NCBI GenBank assembly: GCA_018063105.1
Contig: JAGOQX010000002.1
Location: 1-64,000, forward strand
Length of the DNA: 64,000 nucleotides
Source: Patescibacteria group bacterium
GTDB lineage: Bacteria; Patescibacteriota; Patescibacteriia; 2-12-FULL-60-25
Direction: 5' to 3'
In this document: piece after piece, positions 28,142 through 37,536 of the stretch
How positions within the stretch are numbered: position 1 is the first letter of the stretch
Layout of the letters: each line of letters opens with the position of its first letter
Notes under the pieces: generated by a model
The model's database searches: none
Seen by the model: only the letters and a program-made list of their open reading frames with translations
Told to the model about the DNA's origin: nothing
Translations under genes and position numbers: made by a program

Positions 28142-29038
28142 ATGAAACACTCCTCTGAACTCCCTTGGACCCCTTCTGAAACAAAGCAAATCCTTTCCCA
28201 TGCTGAGGTGATTGCCTCATTACGCGACAAGGTCGAGCAGGGAAAAGCAGATGCGGATGAAAGAAAGCGTTTTACGAAAGCTGTATTCGCATTGAAGAAA
28301 CAGATGGAGGAGAAAGAGAATCCAACGGCCCAGATTATTCTTGCGGAAGCAAAAGACGGTTCAGAGCTTCGATTTGATTTAAAAGAAATACGTGAAACAT
28401 GGGAGGTATTCTATCGTTCTCACAATCTCCCTCAGCTTGCTGATGCGTTACCTTCAGATGTCAAGCTCACCCCAGCTCAAATCGATCTCCTCAAACAAAA
28501 AGCAAAAGAAGGATATACGCGTGCGACCCTTATTCCTGCTGACGCGGAACGCCATCTGCAAACACTCAAAGCAAATCTCACAGATGGTCTCGAAAAAGAT
28601 GCACAGGGCGATCCGATCGAAACTTTTCTGTTTGACAGTGTTAAATCCAGTTTTCCAAACTTGATTGAAACAGCTGATCAGAAACGAAAAGGCAAGGCAT
28701 ATCTGCTCCTCACCAATCCGAATGAATCTCTTGCACCAAATACAAAAAATAAATCTGCTGATGAGCTGATTGCTGAATTCAATACGAAAGGTCTTTCCGG
28801 TCTTACACTTGCCGACTTCCTCATTGAAGAAAGAAAACATTTTGAAGAGACTGGCAAACACTTGGTTGATTTGACGAATAACGAATGGACGTGGCTTCTC
28901 TCCTCCCGCGATGCTGCCTCTCGCGTGCTGGGTGCGGACTGGGATCCGGACGGTCATCGGGTCGCTGTGTACTCGGATCCCTCTGGTAATCGGAACCCGG
29001 ATCTCGGTGCCCGCTCCTCGGTCGTGTTAGAACTTTAA
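28142..29038 (+). CDS. DGR target protein 1 (C-terminal diversified domain)
   Basis: 298 aa. N-terminal helical segment (about 1-60; LPWTPSETKQ, then a charged DERKRFTKAVFALKKQ stretch), a shared scaffold domain (about 62-165; ILAEAKDGSELRFDL, then LLKQKAKEGYTRA), and a C-terminal domain ending in the variable repeat (about 258-295). The closing pattern SRDAASRVL, then Trp, Asn/Asp-rich variable positions and LGARSSVV fits the C-type-lectin-like fold used by DGR targets. Variable residues correspond to template AAY codons. It starts 3 nt after pyk with no obvious Shine-Dalgarno, so it may ride on the pyk transcript. It is a close paralogue of target 3 (33437-34348). The ligand is unknown. Confidence 0.85.
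   Translation: MKHSSELPWTPSETKQILSHAEVIASLRDKVEQGKADADERKRFTKAVFALKKQMEEKENPTAQIILAEAKDGSELRFDLKEIRETWEVFYRSHNLPQLADALPSDVKLTPAQIDLLKQKAKEGYTRATLIPADAERHLQTLKANLTDGLEKDAQGDPIETFLFDSVKSSFPNLIETADQKRKGKAYLLLTNPNESLAPNTKNKSADELIAEFNTKGLSGLTLADFLIEERKHFEETGKHLVDLTNNEWTWLLSSRDAASRVLGADWDPDGHRVAVYSDPSGNRNPDLGARSSVVLEL
28913..29027 (+). repeat. DGR variable repeat VR1
   Basis: 115 bp, in frame at the 3' end of target 1. Within the aligned 115 bp it differs from the template at 11 adenine positions, at the shared T/C site (template T31976), and at one G/C site at the 5' edge. The GC-rich last 25 bp, the presumed initiation site of mutagenic homing, are identical to the template. Confidence 0.9.
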
Positions 29039-29082
29039 CTTGATCTTTATCTTTCTTAACCTTCATCCTTTACCTTTCTGTC
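29039..29082 (+). repeat. Conserved pyrimidine-rich element downstream of VR1
   Basis: About 44 nt starting CTTGATCTTTATCTTTC, repeated after VR2 (31690-31733) and after VR3 (34344-34387) but absent after the template. It begins at the target stop codon or just inside it. It is a candidate cis element that marks the acceptor repeats. Confidence 0.7.
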
Positions 29083-29104
29083 CTTGTCTTTTCTTGGTTG
29101 GTTC

Positions 29105-29133
29105 TTGTGTGTGGTGTAGGAAAAGGATATTAT
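29105..29133 (+). promoter_or_regulatory. Promoter for the ATPase target gene
   Basis: TTGTGT at 29105-29110, a 17-bp spacer, TATTAT at 29128-29133. The predicted start coincides with the ATG at 29140, giving a leaderless transcript. It separates this gene from target 1. Confidence 0.5.
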
Positions 29134-29139
29134 CGCTAT

Positions 29140-31689
29140 ATGGAAAATCCCTTTAAAGCACCGCATCCAATTACCAAGGAACAGAATCCACATCTGAAGG
29201 CTGAACGATTTTTTGTTCTTCTTCGCCAGCGTGGAGATTTGTGGCGGGAGTTACGTTCCTCGTTTACATTGGAAGAGGGATCAAAGCATTTGAAGAATGG
29301 ACAGGCACATGAATTGCTTGAAACGTTAAAAATGAGACGTGGCAAAAATGTGTCTCCGGTGAAAGAGCGCTTTGCCAAGCGCGTTGCAGCGAGCCCGGAA
29401 AAGAAAGCGCAATTAGATGAGATGGAGGTGGAAATCAGAGCACTGTTGGCAGATCCAGAAGTTCACGAAGCGATTCATGAGATGCGTCATTCGCGCGTGA
29501 AGGCGAGTCAAGAGTCGCGACAGGTGATGAACGAGTATCGGGATCTTCATGCGATTGTAGACGAATTATCGGTTCAAGATTTTGATATTTTGCGGCAGGA
29601 GAGCATTTCGACGAGTGATCGCAAGGAGTTAGAACGAAACGAGGCATTACGGATAGAGGTTGGACTTCGCCTGCGAACATTGATGGAATCTCCAGAAACA
29701 GCACGCGCAGCACGTATCGGTGAGTTACTTTCATATTGTGATGAGCTACGAAAAGATCACTATGCGATGACTCCTTCGCGAAAAGAGCTAGCGGATCAAA
29801 TTCGAAGTCTGTGGGCGCGCGGCGAAGCAGTGATGTTGACTGGTTCAACAGGCACCGGCAAAACGGAGTTGTTTTCACATCTGACCAAACAGCTCTATGG
29901 CAAGCCGCTTTCTCGCCTTATTCGTTCAACGCAAAATGTCACGCCAGCAGAGATCTTTGGCAAGATGGGGCTCAGGGCAACACCAGAAGGTGGGACAGAG
30001 ACGTTTTTCCAACCGGGAGTTTACACCGATGCGATCGACAATGGCATGCCGTTTATTATCGACGAGTTTAATATGCTTGAAACGAAAATTCGTTTCGGTC
30101 TCAAGGAATTCTACAATCGTCGTCCGGGTCAATCTGTAGTCATGCAGGAAGATTCTGGTAAAGCACATGTGATTCAAGAAGGGTTTGTCATTGGCGCCAC
30201 AGCGAATGTGAAGGGGGATAAACATAAAGAACGTTTTGAGCTGGACGCGGCTGAAACGCGTGTTTTTGCGAATCGTAAAGTAGGCTTTTTGCCCAAAGAA
30301 GAAATATACGACCTCTTCCTCGCTCAACTGATGACTGATCGTGGAGAGGTGCGTATGGCGTTGGACGATGCACGAGAGACTCTCCCGCGACTTCTTGAAG
30401 CTGCTGAACTTTCTCAACAAGCTTACGAGGGCAAGCAGACCCAATTTTATGCCGAAGGTGGTGGCGTGAAGAAAACACTTGCAGCGCTTGAAAAGGCCGT
30501 ACTTGACCCAGGCCGTGTGCTTAAGATCATCTCTGGTTGGCCACGTGAAGAAGCACGAGGAAAAGATTTTCGCGGGTATCTTGAACGTGAGATTTTGCAC
30601 GTGATCCAAACCGAGGATTATCCCGAGAAGGATCGACGGCTTCTCTTGCAGATTTTTGTGACAAAGGGGTTTTTTAATGGAAAAACAGCTGAAGAATTGG
30701 GCGTGCCAGGTGTAGATGCGGTAAAATTAAAAGCTTGGGGATGGAGTGAGACGCCCAAGCCTTTGTTGAAGACGCAGATCCTTTCGCTGACGCAGGTCGC
30801 AGATCTTGATCCATTCGGGCTTCGTAAACTGCGTGCATCTGAAGCGGCAGATGAATTTTTATCTGACGAATCAGAAGATATGCGGATGGCTATGCAGGCG
30901 TTGCAACATATCGATCTTTCGAAGTTGCCCCCAAAGGCTCAGAAGTTGTTAGAGCAAAAAACAGGCCCGAACGTGATTCTTGCCGAAGCAAAAGACGGTT
31001 CAGAGCTTCGATTTGATTTACAAGAGATTCGCAGAGAGTGGGCCGCTTTTTATCGTATTCATGATTTAGATGATTTAGCGAATGAGCTCCCAGTAAGCAT
31101 AAAACTTACCCCAGAACAAATCGACCTTCTGAAACAAAAAGCAAAAGAAGGGTATACACGCGCTATCCTCATTCCAGCAAACGCGGAACAGCACCTGCAA
31201 ATATTGAAGGAGAAACTGACAGATGGGTATGAGAAAAATCCTGACGGAACCCCTATCAAAACATATCTTGCAGATTACGATGATAAGAAAGGAGTCGCAT
31301 CATCATTTCCAAACCAAATTGAAACAACGGATCCAAGACGAAAAGGCAAAGCATATCTCCTCCTCACAAACCCGAATGAATCTCTCGCGCCAAACACAAA
31401 GAGTAAATCCGCTGATGAGCTGATCGCTGAATTTAACGCAAAAGGTCTTTCTGGTCTTACCCTTGCCGAGCATCTGATTGAAGAGAGAAAACACTTTGAA
31501 GAAACCGGTAAGCACTTGGTTGACGGTTCGAAAGAGTGGACCTGGCTTCTCGCCTCTCGTGATGCTGCCTCTCGCGTGCTGGATGCGCGCTGGCATCCGG
31601 GCGATCATCAGGTCGATGTGTGCTCGCTTCCCTCTGGTGATCGGAGCCCGGATCTCGGTGCCCGCTCCTCGGTCGTGTTAGAACTTTAA
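29140..31689 (+). CDS. DGR target protein 2: MoxR-like AAA+ ATPase fused to a diversified domain
   Basis: 849 aa. An N-terminal helical region (1-200) precedes a MoxR-type AAA+ module: Walker A GSTGTGKT at 235-242, Walker B FIIDEF with D308/E309, and a sensor-1-like GATANV near 355. A helical lid and linker run to about 605. From about 611 the protein carries the same scaffold as the other targets (ILAEAKDGSELRFDL), and it ends in variable repeat VR2. MoxR ATPases normally work with a vWA-domain partner in remodelling or activating other proteins; such a partner is encoded at 34400-36424. The start at 29140 is chosen from the promoter; an upstream in-frame GTG-type start at 29098 would precede it. 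Fusion of an AAA+ motor to a hypervariable recognition domain suggests ligand-triggered ATPase action. Confidence 0.88.
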   Translation: MENPFKAPHPITKEQNPHLKAERFFVLLRQRGDLWRELRSSFTLEEGSKHLKNGQAHELLETLKMRRGKNVSPVKERFAKRVAASPEKKAQLDEMEVEIRALLADPEVHEAIHEMRHSRVKASQESRQVMNEYRDLHAIVDELSVQDFDILRQESISTSDRKELERNEALRIEVGLRLRTLMESPETARAARIGELLSYCDELRKDHYAMTPSRKELADQIRSLWARGEAVMLTGSTGTGKTELFSHLTKQLYGKPLSRLIRSTQNVTPAEIFGKMGLRATPEGGTETFFQPGVYTDAIDNGMPFIIDEFNMLETKIRFGLKEFYNRRPGQSVVMQEDSGKAHVIQEGFVIGATANVKGDKHKERFELDAAETRVFANRKVGFLPKEEIYDLFLAQLMTDRGEVRMALDDARETLPRLLEAAELSQQAYEGKQTQFYAEGGGVKKTLAALEKAVLDPGRVLKIISGWPREEARGKDFRGYLEREILHVIQTEDYPEKDRRLLLQIFVTKGFFNGKTAEELGVPGVDAVKLKAWGWSETPKPLLKTQILSLTQVADLDPFGLRKLRASEAADEFLSDESEDMRMAMQALQHIDLSKLPPKAQKLLEQKTGPNVILAEAKDGSELRFDLQEIRREWAAFYRIHDLDDLANELPVSIKLTPEQIDLLKQKAKEGYTRAILIPANAEQHLQILKEKLTDGYEKNPDGTPIKTYLADYDDKKGVASSFPNQIETTDPRRKGKAYLLLTNPNESLAPNTKSKSADELIAEFNAKGLSGLTLAEHLIEERKHFEETGKHLVDGSKEWTWLLASRDAASRVLDARWHPGDHQVDVCSLPSGDRSPDLGARSSVVLEL
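31564..31678 (+). repeat. DGR variable repeat VR2
   Basis: 115 bp at the 3' end of the ATPase target. It shows 13 differences at template adenines, the shared T/C site, and one G/C site at the extreme 5' edge. The terminal 25 bp match the template until the last base pair. It is followed by the conserved pyrimidine-rich element (31690-31733). Confidence 0.9.
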
Positions 31690-31733
31690 CTTGATCTTTA
31701 TCTTTCCTAACCTTCATCCTTTACCTTTCTGTC
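31690..31733 (+). repeat. Conserved pyrimidine-rich element downstream of VR2
   Basis: About 44 nt nearly identical to 29039-29082 (a T/C change is visible). It overlaps the stop region of the ATPase target. Confidence 0.7.
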
Positions 31734-31937
31734 TTGGGCTCCTGCAGCCAGTCTTGTCCGATGTGGATGGGGTGTTGGTTCGCCCGCTTGGACTGGCAAA
31801 AGGATGCGTCGGCTTTGATTCCGCGTGGTCGTTGCCAGATCACTCCAAAAAACACGACTGTCCCAGATGGTTGCAGCGGTTTTGAGCTGTTCAGCTACGG
31901 CTGTTTGGCTAGTTGAATATGTTGGGACGAGGAGCGG
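31734..31937 (+). other. Non-coding leader between target 2 and the DGR template
   Basis: About 200 bp without a convincing gene. It contains short inverted repeats (for example GGCT..AGCC near 31737 and AGCTGTTCAGCT near 31887) but no clear -35/-10 pair. It probably forms the 5' part of the template RNA, which could be transcribed by read-through from target 2 or from an unrecognised promoter. Confidence 0.45.
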
Positions 31938-32052
31938 GGTGCCTCTCGCGTGCTGAATGCGAACTGGAATCCGGATGATCATCAGGTCAATGTGAACTCG
32001 AATCCCTCTGGTAATCGGAACCCGAATCTCGGTGCCCGCTCCTCGGTCGTGT
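31938..32052 (+). repeat. DGR template repeat (TR)
   Basis: 115 bp, non-coding, aligned without gaps to VR1, VR2 and VR3. It holds 22 adenines, 18 of them concentrated in nine AAT/AAC codons when read in the VR frame. Eighteen of the 22 adenines differ in at least one VR. Randomising AAY codons cannot create stop codons. The TR ends two bases before the stop codon of the opposite-strand avd gene. T31976 is the one internal non-adenine site at which all three VRs (C) disagree with it. Confidence 0.93.
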
Positions 32053-32054
32053 AA

Positions 32055-32417
32055 TTATTGCTGGCGTGAAAAACGAAGCCAACCGCCCAGCATGGAAGTG
32101 ATTTCAATTAATTCCGTGCCAAGTCTTTGATATTCTGCGGTTGTAATGAGTCCTAGTTCGTGCGCCATGCGAAGAAGGAGATTTGTAACATCTGCCTGAG
32201 CGATTGAAGCGCAGAGTGGCTGCGCCTTAAATCCTTTTTGCTCTTGTGCCGCCAAACATGCGGAGGCAATACAATGTAAGAGCGCGGATTCGATACGCTT
32301 CCCAATACTGTATTTTTCCTGTTTGGTGAAGTTATTGACGACGAGGTGTATTTTTACGGCAAGTTGATAGAGCTTGTTAATAACGATTGGTTCGGTCGTG
32401 GTATCCAATATGGACAT
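32055..32417 (-). CDS. avd: DGR accessory protein Avd (four-helix bundle, S23-like)
   Basis: 120 aa, all-helical. Pattern typical of Avd/bAvd-like proteins: a first helix with KLYQLAVKIHLVVNNFTK, a Lys-Tyr-rich turn followed by GKRIESALLHC, and a C-terminal EITSMLGGWLRF. Avd forms a basic pentamer that binds the DGR reverse transcriptase and template RNA in the Bordetella phage system. Here it is encoded on the strand opposite to the RT and TR. Its start codon overlaps the RT start codon region head-to-head by 8 bp, and its stop lies 2 bp from the TR. This layout is unusual, because avd, TR and RT are usually co-oriented. Confidence 0.85.
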   Translation of the reverse strand: MSILDTTTEPIVINKLYQLAVKIHLVVNNFTKQEKYSIGKRIESALLHCIASACLAAQEQKGFKAQPLCASIAQADVTNLLLRMAHELGLITTAEYQRLGTELIEITSMLGGWLRFSRQQ

Positions 32418-33387
32418 ACTATTTGATGAGGTTATAACGTTTGAAACCGTTTATAATGCATGGCTCCGTTTTCGTCGAGGAAAAAGTCAACGAATAGACG
32501 TGGCTATGTTTGAACGACATCTTGAAAGGAATCTGTTCCAGCTATGGTCGGATCTCGAAGGTGGAACATATCGACACGGAGCGTATCAGAGTTTTGAACT
32601 GAAAGATTCGAAGCGACGTCGTATCGATAAAGCAAGTGTTCGTGATCGTGTTGTACATGAGTTTTTGTTTCGATTTCTTCAAAATATTTTCGAGCCGCGA
32701 TTTATAGCAGATTCTTATAGCAGCCGTACAGGAAAAGGGACTCTAAAAGCCTTAAAAAAAGCAGATGCGTTTTTATCACGATGGCGTCGTGGACGTATCG
32801 GTTGGTATGCGGTTATTTGTGATGTTCGTTCATTTTTTGCGACCGTACCACATTCTGTGCTGTTAGAACGTATTGCGGAGCAGGTGAATGATCCCCGATT
32901 ATTCATGTTACTCAAGGATGTGGTAGAGAGTTTCTCGACTGTTGGTACACCAGGTCTTGGAATTCCTCTCGGTAATGTAACATCGCAAATTTTTGCAAAT
33001 ATTGTTTTGCATTGTTTTGATTGGTATGTAAAGAGAACACTCCAACTTCGACGTTATATTCGATATAATGATGACATTCTTGTGGTTATTTTTGGAGTGC
33101 GTCAGGCAGAACGGGTTGGCGTAATGTTGAAAGATGCAATACAGAAGATGAATTTGGACTTGAAAGTCGCCGTTCTTCCTCTCGAAACGCGAACACATTT
33201 TGATTGGCTGGGCGCATCACATTCGATTTCAAGTCGTTGCGTACGTAGGGCAAGTAAAAAACGAATCGAAAAGGCTATTAAAAAGGGTGATAGAAAACAC
33301 CGACGAAGATATGTCACGACAAATACATATCGAAATATGCTGGCGTCATATGATGCTCATGAAAAAGCGTATGACAAGTTTTTTTGA
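32410..33387 (+). CDS. DGR reverse transcriptase
   Basis: 325 aa from ATG 32410. A single RT domain, no endonuclease or maturase domain. The first catalytic Asp is D138 in DVRSFFATVPH. The DGR-type motif IPLGNVTSQ is at 185-193 and the catalytic box YNDD at 219-222 (commonly YMDD in other DGRs). The C-terminus is a basic thumb (KKRIEKAIKKGDRKHRRR). The enzyme copies TR RNA with errors at adenines and the cDNA replaces a VR. No Shine-Dalgarno is evident. The promoter of the next gene overlaps its stop codon. Confidence 0.95.
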   Translation: MDILFDEVITFETVYNAWLRFRRGKSQRIDVAMFERHLERNLFQLWSDLEGGTYRHGAYQSFELKDSKRRRIDKASVRDRVVHEFLFRFLQNIFEPRFIADSYSSRTGKGTLKALKKADAFLSRWRRGRIGWYAVICDVRSFFATVPHSVLLERIAEQVNDPRLFMLLKDVVESFSTVGTPGLGIPLGNVTSQIFANIVLHCFDWYVKRTLQLRRYIRYNDDILVVIFGVRQAERVGVMLKDAIQKMNLDLKVAVLPLETRTHFDWLGASHSISSRCVRRASKKRIEKAIKKGDRKHRRRYVTTNTYRNMLASYDAHEKAYDKFF

Positions 33388-33412
33388 CGTCCACGCACCA
33401 AGAGCTCATACT
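33384..33412 (+). promoter_or_regulatory. Promoter for target 3
   Basis: TTGACG at 33384-33389 (overlapping the RT stop codon), a 17-bp spacer, CATACT at 33407-33412. The predicted start is near 33419, 18 nt before the ATG at 33437. Confidence 0.55.
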
Positions 33413-33436
33413 ACCAACAATATCCGTATTTTCTCT

Positions 33437-34348
33437 ATGTCAAAAGAATTCCCCTGGACCCCCGCTGAAACAAAGCAACTCATGTCTCATGCCGAGGTGA
33501 TTGCTGCGTTACGCGACAAGGTTGAAGAAGGAAAAGCAGATGCGGATGAAAGAAAGCGTTTCACAAAAGCCGTCTTCGCATTGAAGAAACAGATGGAAGA
33601 GAAAGAGAATCCAACAACACACATCATCCTTGCAGAAGCAGCAAACGGTTCAGAGATTCGCTTCGACCTGCGTGAAATCCGCCAAACATGGGAAACCTTC
33701 TACGGAACCCACAACCTTAAACAACTCGCCGACGCCTTGCCTACCGACATCGAGCTCACCCCAACTCAAATTGACCTTCTGAAACAAAAGGCGAAAGAAG
33801 GGTATACACGCGTTATCCTGATCCCTGCCAATGCAGAACAGAGCTTGCAACTGTTGAAAGAGAATCTGACGGATGGGTATGAGAAAAATCCTGACGGAAC
33901 TTCTATCGAAACATATCTTGCAGATTATGATGATAAGAAGGGGGTCAAATCATCATTTCCAAATCTTATTGAAACGACTGATCCGAAACGAAAAGGCAAG
34001 GCATATCTCCTCCTTACGAATCCGAATGAGTCTCTTGCACCAGATTCAAAAAATAAATCTGCTGATGAGCTGGTCGCTGAATTTCAAGCAAAAGGTCTTT
34101 CCGGTCTTACGCTTGCAGATTTTTTTATTGAAGAAAGAAGGCACTTCGAAGAAACTGGCAATCATTTGATTGATTGGGGAAAGAGTGATTATTCATGGCT
34201 TCTGTCGTCCCGCGACGGTGCCTCTCGCGTGCTGGATGCGGGCTGGTATCCGGGCGCTCATCAGGTCGGTGTGCGCTCGTATCCCTCTGGTCTTCGGAAC
34301 CCGCATCTCGGTGCCCGCTCCTCGGTCGTGTTAGACCTTGAGTCTTGA
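33437..34348 (+). CDS. DGR target protein 3 (C-terminal diversified domain)
   Basis: 303 aa from ATG 33437; an in-frame start inside the RT gene is not favoured because a promoter lies between. Close paralogue of target 1 along its whole length (FPWTPAETKQLMSHAEVIAALRD opening is similar). The shared scaffold domain lies at about 62-175 and a C-terminal lectin-like domain carries VR3. It differs from target 1 by several substitutions and by the insert ADYDDKKGV, which it shares with target 2, so scaffold segments appear mosaic. It is 51 nt upstream of the vWA gene and probably in one transcript with it. Confidence 0.85.
   Translation: MSKEFPWTPAETKQLMSHAEVIAALRDKVEEGKADADERKRFTKAVFALKKQMEEKENPTTHIILAEAANGSEIRFDLREIRQTWETFYGTHNLKQLADALPTDIELTPTQIDLLKQKAKEGYTRVILIPANAEQSLQLLKENLTDGYEKNPDGTSIETYLADYDDKKGVKSSFPNLIETTDPKRKGKAYLLLTNPNESLAPDSKNKSADELVAEFQAKGLSGLTLADFFIEERRHFEETGNHLIDWGKSDYSWLLSSRDGASRVLDAGWYPGAHQVGVRSYPSGLRNPHLGARSSVVLDLES
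34217..34331 (+). repeat. DGR variable repeat VR3
   Basis: 115 bp at the 3' end of target 3. It shows 14 differences at template adenines plus the shared T/C site and no other change. The 5' GGT matches the template, unlike VR1 and VR2. Confidence 0.9.
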
Positions 34349-34387
34349 TCTTTACCTTTCTTAACCTTCATCCTTTACCTTTCAGTT
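34344..34387 (+). repeat. Conserved pyrimidine-rich element downstream of VR3
   Basis: Same element as at 29039-29082 and 31690-31733, slightly diverged at its 3' end. It sits in the gap between target 3 and the vWA gene. Confidence 0.65.
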
Positions 34388-34399
34388 TTTTCCCTTGCT

Positions 34400-36424
34400 A
34401 TGGCTCGAAAATTTGATGGTGGAATGCCGCAGGCTCCAACTGGAGTTCCAGTAGCTGAAAAAGAATGGACATCTGAAGCCAAGCTCGCGGATTTTTTTTC
34501 ACGCAACCAAGATTTTTTTGCACTGTACGCGGGCGACGCTAGTATTAAAGCCAAGCCTAGCCGAAATCTCGGAACATTTGCCATTGATCTTGAAAAAGGT
34601 GTGTTGTATGGTGACCCAAGTTATTACGAGAAAAAAGGACTCACCGAAGCGCATGCCTTCAATTCGTTCTTGCATGAGTTTGAACATTTTTGCCGACTCA
34701 TGACTCTCGCTCACGAGCGCCAAGGACTCGATATTTGGCGAAAGCACCGAGACCGGATGAAGACGAAACCTCATTTGCATGTGTTCGACAATGTGCTTGA
34801 GGATATCAGTGTTGATCGCGCAATTCTGTCTCGTGCGCCGTCTCAAAAGGAAACGCAGTTTGATTTGTATCGCACGCATTTGTGGCCGAGTACGGATTTT
34901 CAAAAATTGCCACGTCACTTGCAATTCATTTACGGATTGTTTCGTGAGCAGATGATGCCAGACGAACCGGTTACGGTAGCTGAAGAGGTGCGTACAGAGA
35001 TTGACCGACTTCAAGCCATGAAGAACACCTCGGGTCAGAGCGTAGTCGAGGTTATTTCGAATCCGGATTTACCACAAGCGAAGCGTCTCGCTCTGCAAGA
35101 GAAGTTCTTTGAGTCTATCTACGAACGCCTGTTTCAACAGGATGCGGAAGAAAAGAAGAAAGAAAAAGAAGATGAAGAAAAGGGTAAGCAGGAACAGGAA
35201 GGAGAGGGCCAGGAAGGCGAGGGGCAAGAGCAGGAACAGTCAGGAGACGGTTCAAAACAGGAGGGTGAACCAGGCGAGAAAGGAAAGAAAGGGAAAAAAG
35301 GTAAACCAGTGCCTGGGCAACCGACCGAACAGCCTCAGTCAGGTGAATCTTCTGATCTGGACGAGCTCTTCAAAGAACATTACGAGGCATATTTTGAGAA
35401 ATCACCAGATGCGGCTCTTTCCGAGGAACAAATTGAGGAAGCATTGAAAAAAATAGAAGTTTCAAAATCAGGCAAATCAAAGTCTGCGGATGAACTGGCG
35501 GCTGAAGCGTATGCCAAGGAAGTCGGTGTGACGCTTGAGGATCTTCAGGCCTATCAGAAGTTTTGGGAGAAGATTGAACAGATGCGCTCACCAGAGGATG
35601 AACTTGTTCTGGAGCAACTCCGCGAAGTGTTTCGTCAGATCGTGACGGAACGGTTGAAGCGCGTAGATCGACCAAAGCAACCGGTCGAGGAAGGAGAATA
35701 TTTAATGAAACCCGCGGAAGCTGTCGCAGAAATTCGTTCCGGGCACACAGAGCCGCGCGTCTGGATGACGTACGAAACGAAAGAGCACCCGAAGGAATTG
35801 TACGGCGCGTTCGATGTTACTCTGGTGTGTGATCGTTCTGGCTCGATGGACGAATCATCTGATGGAATCGTAAAAAAGGAAGAGCAACGCAAGGCTGCTG
35901 TACTATTGCTTGAAGCTCTGTGTGAGTTTTGTGATGATCTGGACGACGCGCGAAAAGATCTGAAATCGGATTTGCATGTGCGAAGCGAAGTCTGGGCATT
36001 CGGCGGTCCATCTGAAGTCGGTTGTTTGAAGGTGCTTTCCGAAGAATTGTCTGATAGACAACGCGTAGCGGTTTTCAAGGAGTTGGCAAGTACGCCAGGA
36101 AAATCAACGCGCGACGATTTAGCGCTCACAGGGATCGCAACTTCTATTCCGGAGGAAGATGTAGAGCGTATTGCAAAAGGAGAATTGCGTAAGATCGTGA
36201 TTGTTCTCACGGATGGCGAAAGCACGAATGCTATCGATGCAAAAAAAGCGATACAAAGATTACGTGAAAAAGGGGTGATCGTGACAGCTATTGGAATTAC
36301 GGAGAGTGGAAAAGCAGCGATTGACCTCTACGCACCGGATGCGAGTCTCGCCGAGAACGCGTCATTCATTGGTGTGCGGGTTAGTGAAACTCTTGAAACT
36401 TTTATCAAAGGGTTGAATTCTTGA
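34400..36424 (+). CDS. HExxH metallopeptidase-like plus vWA-domain protein (MoxR partner type)
   Basis: 674 aa. The N-terminal domain has a zinc-protease-like HEFEH motif (H92, E93, H96), followed by NVLEDISVDRAI (about 133-144), which resembles the third-ligand region of vWA-linked metallopeptidase domains. An acidic/Lys/Gln/Gly-rich low-complexity linker lies at about 250-325. The C-terminal von Willebrand A domain carries the MIDAS motif DRSGS at 478-482 and LTDGEST near 610. Proteins of this architecture (CobT/CoxE-like) function with MoxR-type AAA+ ATPases; the ATPase target at 29140-31689 is the obvious partner. No signal peptide, so cytoplasmic. Whether the HExxH site is catalytic is untested. 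Confidence 0.85.
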   Translation: MARKFDGGMPQAPTGVPVAEKEWTSEAKLADFFSRNQDFFALYAGDASIKAKPSRNLGTFAIDLEKGVLYGDPSYYEKKGLTEAHAFNSFLHEFEHFCRLMTLAHERQGLDIWRKHRDRMKTKPHLHVFDNVLEDISVDRAILSRAPSQKETQFDLYRTHLWPSTDFQKLPRHLQFIYGLFREQMMPDEPVTVAEEVRTEIDRLQAMKNTSGQSVVEVISNPDLPQAKRLALQEKFFESIYERLFQQDAEEKKKEKEDEEKGKQEQEGEGQEGEGQEQEQSGDGSKQEGEPGEKGKKGKKGKPVPGQPTEQPQSGESSDLDELFKEHYEAYFEKSPDAALSEEQIEEALKKIEVSKSGKSKSADELAAEAYAKEVGVTLEDLQAYQKFWEKIEQMRSPEDELVLEQLREVFRQIVTERLKRVDRPKQPVEEGEYLMKPAEAVAEIRSGHTEPRVWMTYETKEHPKELYGAFDVTLVCDRSGSMDESSDGIVKKEEQRKAAVLLLEALCEFCDDLDDARKDLKSDLHVRSEVWAFGGPSEVGCLKVLSEELSDRQRVAVFKELASTPGKSTRDDLALTGIATSIPEEDVERIAKGELRKIVIVLTDGESTNAIDAKKAIQRLREKGVIVTAIGITESGKAAIDLYAPDASLAENASFIGVRVSETLETFIKGLNS

Positions 36425-36470
36425 CCCCAGAGCTCATATCTCATATAATCTCCTATATACAATATATGAG
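36421..36470 (+). promoter_or_regulatory. Near-consensus promoter and candidate operator for the Fic gene
   Basis: TTGACC at 36421-36426, exactly 17 bp, TATAAT at 36444-36449. The -10 is flanked by tandem CTCATAT copies (36433-36439, 36440-36446) and an inverted ATATGAG (36464-36470). This could be an autoregulatory operator for the winged-helix domain of the Fic protein. The promoter explains the spurious in-frame TTG at 36421. Confidence 0.7.
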
Positions 36471-37536
36471 ATTAAGCAATGTACGCCGTGATCAACGGAT
36501 TCAGCATATTCCGCAAAAGCTCTGGTCTCTTATTATTCAAATTGATGAATTGAAAGGCCGTTGGGTTGGAGGAGCGTCTTTGAACCCGCAGGTATTGGGT
36601 CGATTGAAGCGTTCAGTTTTGATTACATCTGCTGGTGCGTCTACGCGTATTGAAGGTGCAAAACTTTCGGATGAAGATGTTGAAAAACTCATGCGTGGTC
36701 TTTCTGTTAAAAAATTCGCTGATCGTGATCAGCAAGAGGTTAAAGGATATTATGAGCTTTTGGAAAATGTTTTTCATGGTTGGAAGCAGATCTCATTTAA
36801 TGAAAATGCAATAAAACATCTTCACAAAGAGCTGTTGAGATTTGTATCTAAAGACGAACGTCATCGAGGAGAATATAAAAAGATGGAAAATACAGTTGAG
36901 ATGTATGACGAATCGGGAAAATCAATTGGCGTCATTTTTGAAACAACTCCTGCATACCTTGTGCCGAAGCAGATGCAAGAGCTTGTAACGTGGACGGCGG
37001 ATGCCTTGACTCAAAAAGAATTCCATCCGTTGTTGATTATCGGAAATTTTCTTGTTGAATTTCTCGCTATCCATCCATTTCAAGATGGGAATGGGCGTCT
37101 TTCTCGTATCCTGGCAAATCTTCTTATGTTGAAAGTTGGATATGAGTACATACCATATGCTTCGCATGAAAAATTAGTTGAAGAGCATAAGGCTGAATAT
37201 TATCTTGAACTTAGGAAAAGTCAGAAGACGCTGAATACAGACCATGAGGATGTCTCCGCGTGGTTGGAATTCTTTTTGGTAATTTCGCTGAGTCAGGCGA
37301 AACAGGCAATTGAGCTTTTGTCTCATGAGAATATCGAACGACTTCTATCTCCAAAACAGCTCGTTGTTTGGAAGAGTATTGAAGGTGTTGCCGAGATGAC
37401 TCCTGGTGAGATCGCGAAAGTAACCGGAGTGGCTCGACCAACGGTTTCACAGGCATTGGATATTCTGATGCGTTTAAAAAAAGTTGAGCGAATCGGGCAG
37501 GGACGAACAACGAGGTATCGAAAAGTTGGTACGTAA
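36466..37536 (+). CDS. Fic-domain AMP-transferase with C-terminal winged helix
   Basis: 356 aa from ATG 36466. The Fic active site HPFQDGNGR is complete at 203-211 (catalytic H203), so transfer of AMP or another nucleotide to a protein hydroxyl is expected. An N-terminal inhibitory motif STRIEG (59-64) matches class II Fic proteins, which are autoinhibited until the Glu is displaced. The C-terminal 55 residues form a winged-helix/HTH (GEIAKVTGVARPTVSQALDI). It has its own strong promoter just inside the end of the vWA gene and a bidirectional terminator after it. It may belong to the DGR island or be an independent cargo gene. Confidence 0.9.
   Translation: MRLSNVRRDQRIQHIPQKLWSLIIQIDELKGRWVGGASLNPQVLGRLKRSVLITSAGASTRIEGAKLSDEDVEKLMRGLSVKKFADRDQQEVKGYYELLENVFHGWKQISFNENAIKHLHKELLRFVSKDERHRGEYKKMENTVEMYDESGKSIGVIFETTPAYLVPKQMQELVTWTADALTQKEFHPLLIIGNFLVEFLAIHPFQDGNGRLSRILANLLMLKVGYEYIPYASHEKLVEEHKAEYYLELRKSQKTLNTDHEDVSAWLEFFLVISLSQAKQAIELLSHENIERLLSPKQLVVWKSIEGVAEMTPGEIAKVTGVARPTVSQALDILMRLKKVERIGQGRTTRYRKVGT

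What the first reader, a model, noticed from the sequence alone, without database searches (positions are those of the whole stretch)
28142..34348. Complete diversity-generating retroelement with one template and three targets
The sequence shows an RT with GNVTSQ and YNDD motifs, an Avd-type gene, a 115-bp template repeat, and three in-frame 115-bp variable repeats at the 3' ends of three genes. The gapless, same-length alignment and the confinement of internal change to template adenines (one exception) are diagnostic of DGR activity. Three targets served by one template are many for a single locus, and all are reachable by one RNA.
Basis: partly seen in the sequence, partly recalled or inferred. 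Interest (0 to 1): 0.93.

Follow-up and report, generated by a model that had tools for sequence, protein, structure and literature searches.

The report
Hypermutating retroelement editing a MoxR ATPase
An uncultured ultra-small bacterium (Patescibacteria) carries a gene-rewriting retroelement whose single RNA template re-randomises the tips of three related proteins, one of them fused to a MoxR-type ATP-driven motor beside its usual vWA partner gene, which suggests variable sensors that work inside the cell.

Summary
The window holds a complete diversity-generating retroelement (DGR): one 117-nt template (31938-32054), three variable repeats, RT and Avd. Of the internal differences 38 of 41 lie at template adenines (P 1e-7 to 1e-9 per repeat); all 22 core adenines sit at codon positions 1 or 2. 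The one exception, T31976, is a template change that none of the three repeats has received, so none was rewritten there since. Three targets are not exceptional in general (28.6% of DGRs have several repeats), though rare among the Patescibacteria loci examined. Two things stand out. (1) The middle target is a MoxR-type AAA+ ATPase fused to the variable domain, with a vWA gene downstream; such fusions recur in seven other loci, with at least four gains or losses on an RT tree. Published ternary conflict systems carry the variable lectin on the vWA protein instead. (2) Patescibacteria DGRs have a non-BPP-1 layout: Avd antisense between TR and RT, and in most a terminator-like hairpin after TR and a covarying RNA leader directly 5' of TR, absent from Rfam. 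The window shares the antisense Avd; leader and terminator were not found in it. Activity and function are untested.

The parts
31938..32054 (+). Template repeat (TR); 113-nt core 31940-32052 with 22 adenines in 13 codons
28913..29029 (+). VR1, 3' end of target 1
31564..31680 (+). VR2, 3' end of target 2 (MoxR fusion)
34217..34333 (+). VR3, 3' end of target 3
28142..29038 (+). Target 1, 298 aa, no Pfam match, no TM-strength segment; starts 3 nt after the stop of the upstream gene (pyruvate kinase by sequence, own reading)
29140..31689 (+). Target 2, 849 aa: AAA_5/MoxR-type ATPase (Walker A GSTGTGKT, Walker B FIIDEFN) fused to the target domain
31735..31937 (+). Non-coding leader 5' of TR, with blocks conserved in L068; candidate stem CUGUCCCA/UGGGACGAG next to TR (no covariation, not unusually stable)
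32055..32417 (-). Avd (bAvd family), antisense, stop codon abutting the TR
32410..33387 (+). DGR reverse transcriptase, 325 aa
33437..34348 (+). Target 3, 303 aa, paralogue of target 1 (77%)
34400..36424 (+). vWA protein, 674 aa; 65% identical relative directly after the RT in L068
36421..37536 (+). Fic protein with C-terminal helix-turn-helix, SoFic-like, overlapping the vWA gene by 4 nt; possible effector, linkage not conserved in L068
29030..29083 (+). Pyrimidine-rich 3' flank shared by VR1, VR2 (31681-31734) and VR3 (34334-34388); candidate cis element for retrohoming or a relic of duplication

Best explanation
It is a chromosomal Patescibacteria DGR. Shown by sequence: one TR, three A-directed VRs, a DGR-type RT, Avd on the opposite strand, targets without TM-strength segments, one target fused to a MoxR AAA+ ATPase, and a vWA gene downstream. 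Inferred from known DGRs: the + strand TR RNA is copied by RT-Avd with random bases opposite adenines and the cDNA replaces the VRs, so up to 22 adenines in 13 codons are re-drawn in each of three ligand-binding domains. Inferred: these domains (probably C-type-lectin-like) are intracellular recognition tips; binding through target 2, or through the free targets 1 and 3, drives or gates the MoxR-vWA chaperone pair, which remodels or releases an effector (perhaps the vWA protein itself or the adjacent SoFic-like Fic protein). This is a diversified sensor wired to a MoxR motor, akin to the proposed DGR/MoxR-vWA conflict systems but with the variable domain on the motor.
For: TR/VR statistics; three partners only in the whole assembly; RT and Avd identity. 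MoxR-VR fusion with in-frame VR also in L073, L129, L135, L144 (Magasanikbacteria), L175, L187 (Uhrbacteria) and L205 (Falkowbacteria), with a vWA or vWA-like gene nearby in all but L144. At least 4 changes of that label on the RT tree, so the link was made or broken repeatedly. Plain MoxR-vWA pairs without a DGR in related genomes. No TM-strength segment in the targets. Nine of the ten best PDB fold matches are C-type lectins. DGR plus MoxR-vWA association known elsewhere (PMC7159879, PMC10907252). SoFic-like neighbour.
Against: No reads, so current diversification is unseen; T31976 shows no VR was rewritten at that base since the TR changed. The lectin fold is suggested, not established (best Foldseek E 0.11, TM 0.25-0.29 by query). 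No third component of the published ternary systems among the proteins examined; bpMoxR scores below its cutoff. Fic linkage is not seen in L068. MoxR and vWA proteins also have housekeeping assembly roles.
Confidence: 0.6

Rival explanations
1. A genuine DGR whose targets serve attachment or other extracellular binding; the MoxR-vWA association is incidental or serves a housekeeping assembly job.
For: Roux 2021 finds that most cellular DGR targets are membrane-anchored binders (PMC8144416); Patescibacteria depend on contact with hosts (general knowledge).
Against: No TM-strength segment in any of the three targets; MoxR-VR fusion in eight loci in all, with vWA genes beside most.
Confidence: 0.2
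2. A DGR that is intact but now quiescent; the three VRs are frozen alleles of past diversification.
For: TR T31976 differs from C in all three VRs; the TR of the nearest relative L068 also has C there, so the TR changed last.
Against: RT, Avd and all three targets are open and RT motifs intact; a single base, one assembly; a recent TR change or partial conversion tracts would give the same picture.
Confidence: 0.3
3. Not a DGR: three paralogues diverging by ordinary mutation, with the 'template' a gene fragment.
For: Targets 1-3 are paralogues, about 75% identical outside the VRs.
Against: Changes confined to adenines with P 1e-7 to 1e-9; RT and Avd adjacent; same pattern in scores of related loci.
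Confidence: 0.01

Closest known systems
Patescibacteria/CPR DGRs (DGR clade 2 of Roux et al. 2021, PMC8144416)
   Same: RT kin, A-directed TR/VR, chromosomal, targets without TM; Avd antisense between TR and RT as in all 75 named relatives with a detected Avd
   Different: Three targets instead of the usual one; a recognisable MoxR domain on a target, where Roux et al. report that CPR targets typically lack any recognisable domain; leader R1 and terminator not found
DGR-associated MoxR-vWA ternary conflict systems (Kaur 2020 PMC7159879; Dore 2024 PMC10907252)
   Same: DGR together with a MoxR ATPase and a vWA protein; variable C-terminal domain, lectin-like where known
   Different: There the variable lectin is on the vWA component, or on a separate protein next to MoxR; here it is fused to MoxR. 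No VMAP/iSTAND-like third component seen. Different bacterial lineage
Bordetella phage BPP-1 DGR
   Same: TR, VR, Avd, RT; adenine mutagenesis pattern; VR at the 3' end of the target gene
   Different: BPP-1 order is mtd-avd-TR-brt on one strand, with a structured 3' spacer that recruits bRT-Avd and avd mRNA 5' of TR (PMC12875486). Here Avd is antisense and lies 3' of the TR

Membership tests
Diversity-generating retroelement | TR and VR nearly identical, differing at TR adenines | tested here: met
Diversity-generating retroelement | RT of the DGR type | tested here: met
   Best PDB match is entry 8ub7 (its identity as the BPP-1 RT is own knowledge); its kin are RTs of A-biased TR/VR loci. In the tree window and L068 are a long-branch pair, so the exact place is unsure
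Diversity-generating retroelement | Avd accessory protein | tested here: met
   Pfam bAvd above cutoff; NCBIfam equivalog cutoff not reached
Diversity-generating retroelement | VR at the 3' end of an open target gene | tested here: met
   Three genes
Diversity-generating retroelement | Target with C-type lectin fold (usual, not universal) | tested here: inconclusive
   AF2 model pLDDT 88.7; C-type lectins lead the PDB fold list, best E 0.11
Diversity-generating retroelement | Mutagenic retrohoming takes place | not testable with these tools
   Needs reads or an assay
Patescibacteria DGR with R1 template-RNA leader | R1 three-way-junction leader directly 5' of TR | tested here: not met
   No match 5' of the window's TR even with filters off; the three other DGRs of this genome match
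MoxR-vWA ternary conflict system (Kaur 2020) | MoxR AAA+ ATPase | tested here: met
   AAA_5 above cutoff; bpMoxR model below cutoff
MoxR-vWA ternary conflict system (Kaur 2020) | vWA protein in the same locus | tested here: met
   PF00092 above cutoff
MoxR-vWA ternary conflict system (Kaur 2020) | Third component (VMAP, iSTAND or beta-propeller protein) | tested here: not met
   None among the seven proteins of the locus examined; genes further away were not scanned

The most novel reading that the evidence does not exclude
A cellular receptor set: one template RNA re-randomises two free lectin-like sensors and a third built into the MoxR motor that acts with a vWA partner and a SoFic-like Fic protein, giving an ultra-small symbiont or parasite an adaptable intracellular immune or recognition system; MoxR-VR fusions arose repeatedly because placing the variable tip on the motor couples recognition to ATP-driven effector release.
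Probability: 0.25. Interest if true: 0.82.

Novelty: new variant of a known kind. Interest (0 to 1): 0.56.

Why it matters
What CPR DGRs diversify is an open question: Roux et al. 2021 note that their targets typically show no recognisable domain and leave their nature open. A target fused to a MoxR ATPase next to a vWA gene, recurring in other Patescibacteria lineages, gives a concrete, testable answer for one class of them and links them to proposed intracellular conflict systems. The comparison also shows that these DGRs do not use the BPP-1 RNA layout, so priming and termination of mutagenic cDNA may work differently in one of the largest groups of DGRs.

Tried and rejected
Single-protein scans for the RT in genome contigs and viral contigs found nothing; a profile scan gave 80 named loci. 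AF2 on the three window targets alone was poor (pLDDT 53) and was replaced by an 11-sequence alignment. The viral fold library gave no significant match. Sequence and profile searches for the target domain in Pfam and the PDB gave no convincing family; the one low E-value (7mcd, a designed TIM barrel) covers a helical stretch and is taken as chance. Rfam had no match in the locus. I considered that the window's own leader is a diverged R1: no support, and its folding energy is ordinary (z -0.33; -1.41 for the last 91 nt). No terminator was found 3' of the window's TR. Ordinary paralogue divergence was rejected by the adenine pattern. Paul 2017 (Nat Microbiol), the main CPR DGR survey, and Wu 2018 are not held, so whether they already noted the antisense Avd or a MoxR fusion could not be checked.

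Full report
What is there. The window (contig C37 of a 962-kb, 56-contig assembly, about 90% complete) contains a TR at 31938-32054 and VRs at 28913-29029, 31564-31680 and 34217-34333. In the 113-nt core the three VRs differ from TR at 12, 14 and 15 sites, of which 11, 13 and 14 are TR adenines (binomial P 1.5e-7, 6.6e-9, 1.4e-9). 18 of 22 adenines vary. All 22 lie at codon positions 1 or 2, in 13 codons, so every hit is likely to change the protein. The TR has no other partner in the assembly.

The one exception. At 31976 TR has T and all three VRs have C; the TR of the nearest relative, L068, also has C. The simplest reading is that TR changed C to T after the last rewriting of all three VRs at that base. 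The DGR is intact, but recent activity is not shown. One base in one assembly is weak evidence, and partial conversion tracts are possible.

Genes. Target 1 (28142-29038) and target 3 (33437-34348) are paralogues, 298 and 303 aa. Target 2 (29140-31689) is a 849-aa AAA_5/MoxR-type ATPase whose C-terminal 240 residues are the same target domain. Avd (32055-32417) is on the minus strand with its stop abutting the TR; RT is 32410-33387. A vWA gene (34400-36424) and a Fic gene (36421-37536; PADLOC SoFic E 1e-42) follow. None of the three targets has a TM-strength hydrophobic segment, so the ligand is probably intracellular. Upstream genes read as housekeeping ones (FtsA/FtsZ-, NrdR- and pyruvate kinase-like by sequence, own reading), so this is chromosomal and not an obvious prophage.

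The target domain. An AF2 model from 11 homologues (window plus named Patescibacteria loci) has pLDDT 88.7. Nine of the ten best PDB fold matches are C-type lectins, but the best E is 0.11, so the fold is suggested, not proven. The C-terminal pattern RVLNANWNPDD...NPNLGARSSVV resembles that of DGR lectin targets (own knowledge).

Other DGRs in the genome. The same genome has three more RTs, each with its own single TR/VR pair and antisense Avd. Their class includes Ca. Uhrbacteria: loci of same-class genomes coincide in length with named Uhrbacteria contigs.

MoxR fusion recurs. VR lies in frame at the end of a MoxR/AAA_5 protein also in L073, L129 (AAA-VR, TR, Avd, RT, vWA: the window's order), L135, L144, L175, L187 and L205. 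Among 58 VR-bearing genes of the named loci four are such fusions. Some vWA-like partners carry a transglutaminase-like domain. RT-vWA adjacency without a visible fusion occurs in L068, L130, L132, L169 and L218, and plain MoxR-vWA pairs without a DGR exist. On a quick ML tree of 127 RTs the fusion label needs at least four changes (SH-aLRT support only, many open forks). So the link between DGR and MoxR-vWA was made or lost several times. In published systems the variable lectin sits on the vWA protein or a protein beside MoxR.

Layout of Patescibacteria DGRs. Avd is antisense in 75 of 75 named loci where it was detected, between TR and RT in 59 of 60 with a TR. BPP-1 has mtd-avd-TR-brt on one strand, and its 3' spacer recruits the RT complex. 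Of 99 distinct TRs, 80 have a terminator-like hairpin within 80 nt 3' against 7.4 in shuffles (simple dinucleotide-block shuffles). Directly 5' of TR most have a three-way-junction RNA leader: covariation score 0.579 against 0.209 (sd 0.024) in shuffles and at most 0.154 when slid. A covariance model from 13 sequences finds 51 of 72 named loci; in 45 of the 47 with a known TR the leader ends within -4 to +16 nt of TR. A search of the window's own genome hits exactly its three other DGRs. Rfam has no such family at gathering threshold in 13 loci. G-U pairs outnumber A-C (26 to 10), favouring the TR RNA strand. A leader at that place could stop cDNA synthesis at the TR 5' end, as avd mRNA does in BPP-1; this is inference.

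The window's own RNA. R1 does not match 5' of its TR and no terminator follows. Its leader shares conserved blocks with L068, including a possible stem next to TR, but two sequences cannot show covariation. Together with the long RT branch shared with L068 this marks a divergent sublineage.

Verdict. The DGR kind is known; the MoxR fusion in a CPR locus is a new variant. The R1 leader and antisense-Avd layout came out of the comparison and may be the more general result, though they are only partly features of this window. Novelty is limited by two unread surveys.

Noticed in passing
L094:11143-11245 and 50 other named loci; own genome L035, L036, L037: Conserved, covarying three-way-junction RNA leader (model R1) directly 5' of the TR in most Patescibacteria DGRs, not in Rfam; not found in the window's own DGR.
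   Followed up: yes
99 distinct TRs of Patescibacteria DGR loci: A terminator-like hairpin follows the TR within 80 nt in 80 of 99 (7.4 expected), so the TR RNA is probably a short separate transcript converging with avd.
   Followed up: partly
75 named loci; window 32055-32417: Avd is always antisense to TR and RT and lies between them, unlike BPP-1.
   Followed up: yes
Window 29030-29083, 31681-31734, 34334-34388: Pyrimidine-rich flank after each VR; VR1 and VR2 flanks agree at 58 of 60 bases over 29025-29084 although the target coding DNA agrees at only about 70%; a similar tract follows the L068 VR.
   Followed up: partly
L064 (G191:C37): TR, Avd, vWA gene and a VR target (plus a VR piece at the contig edge) with no RT on the 4.5-kb contig; the RT may act from elsewhere.
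   Followed up: no
L073:3167-5683, L175:3686-6364, L187:12550-15045: vWA-like partner proteins of MoxR-VR fusions carry a transglutaminase-like domain, a possible effector.
   Followed up: partly
L093:2846-2969 (-): LOOT RNA (RF03000) overlapping the 3' end of a DGR RT gene on the opposite strand.
   Followed up: no
Window 36421-37536: SoFic-like Fic protein with a C-terminal helix-turn-helix overlapping the vWA stop codon; possible effector.
   Followed up: partly
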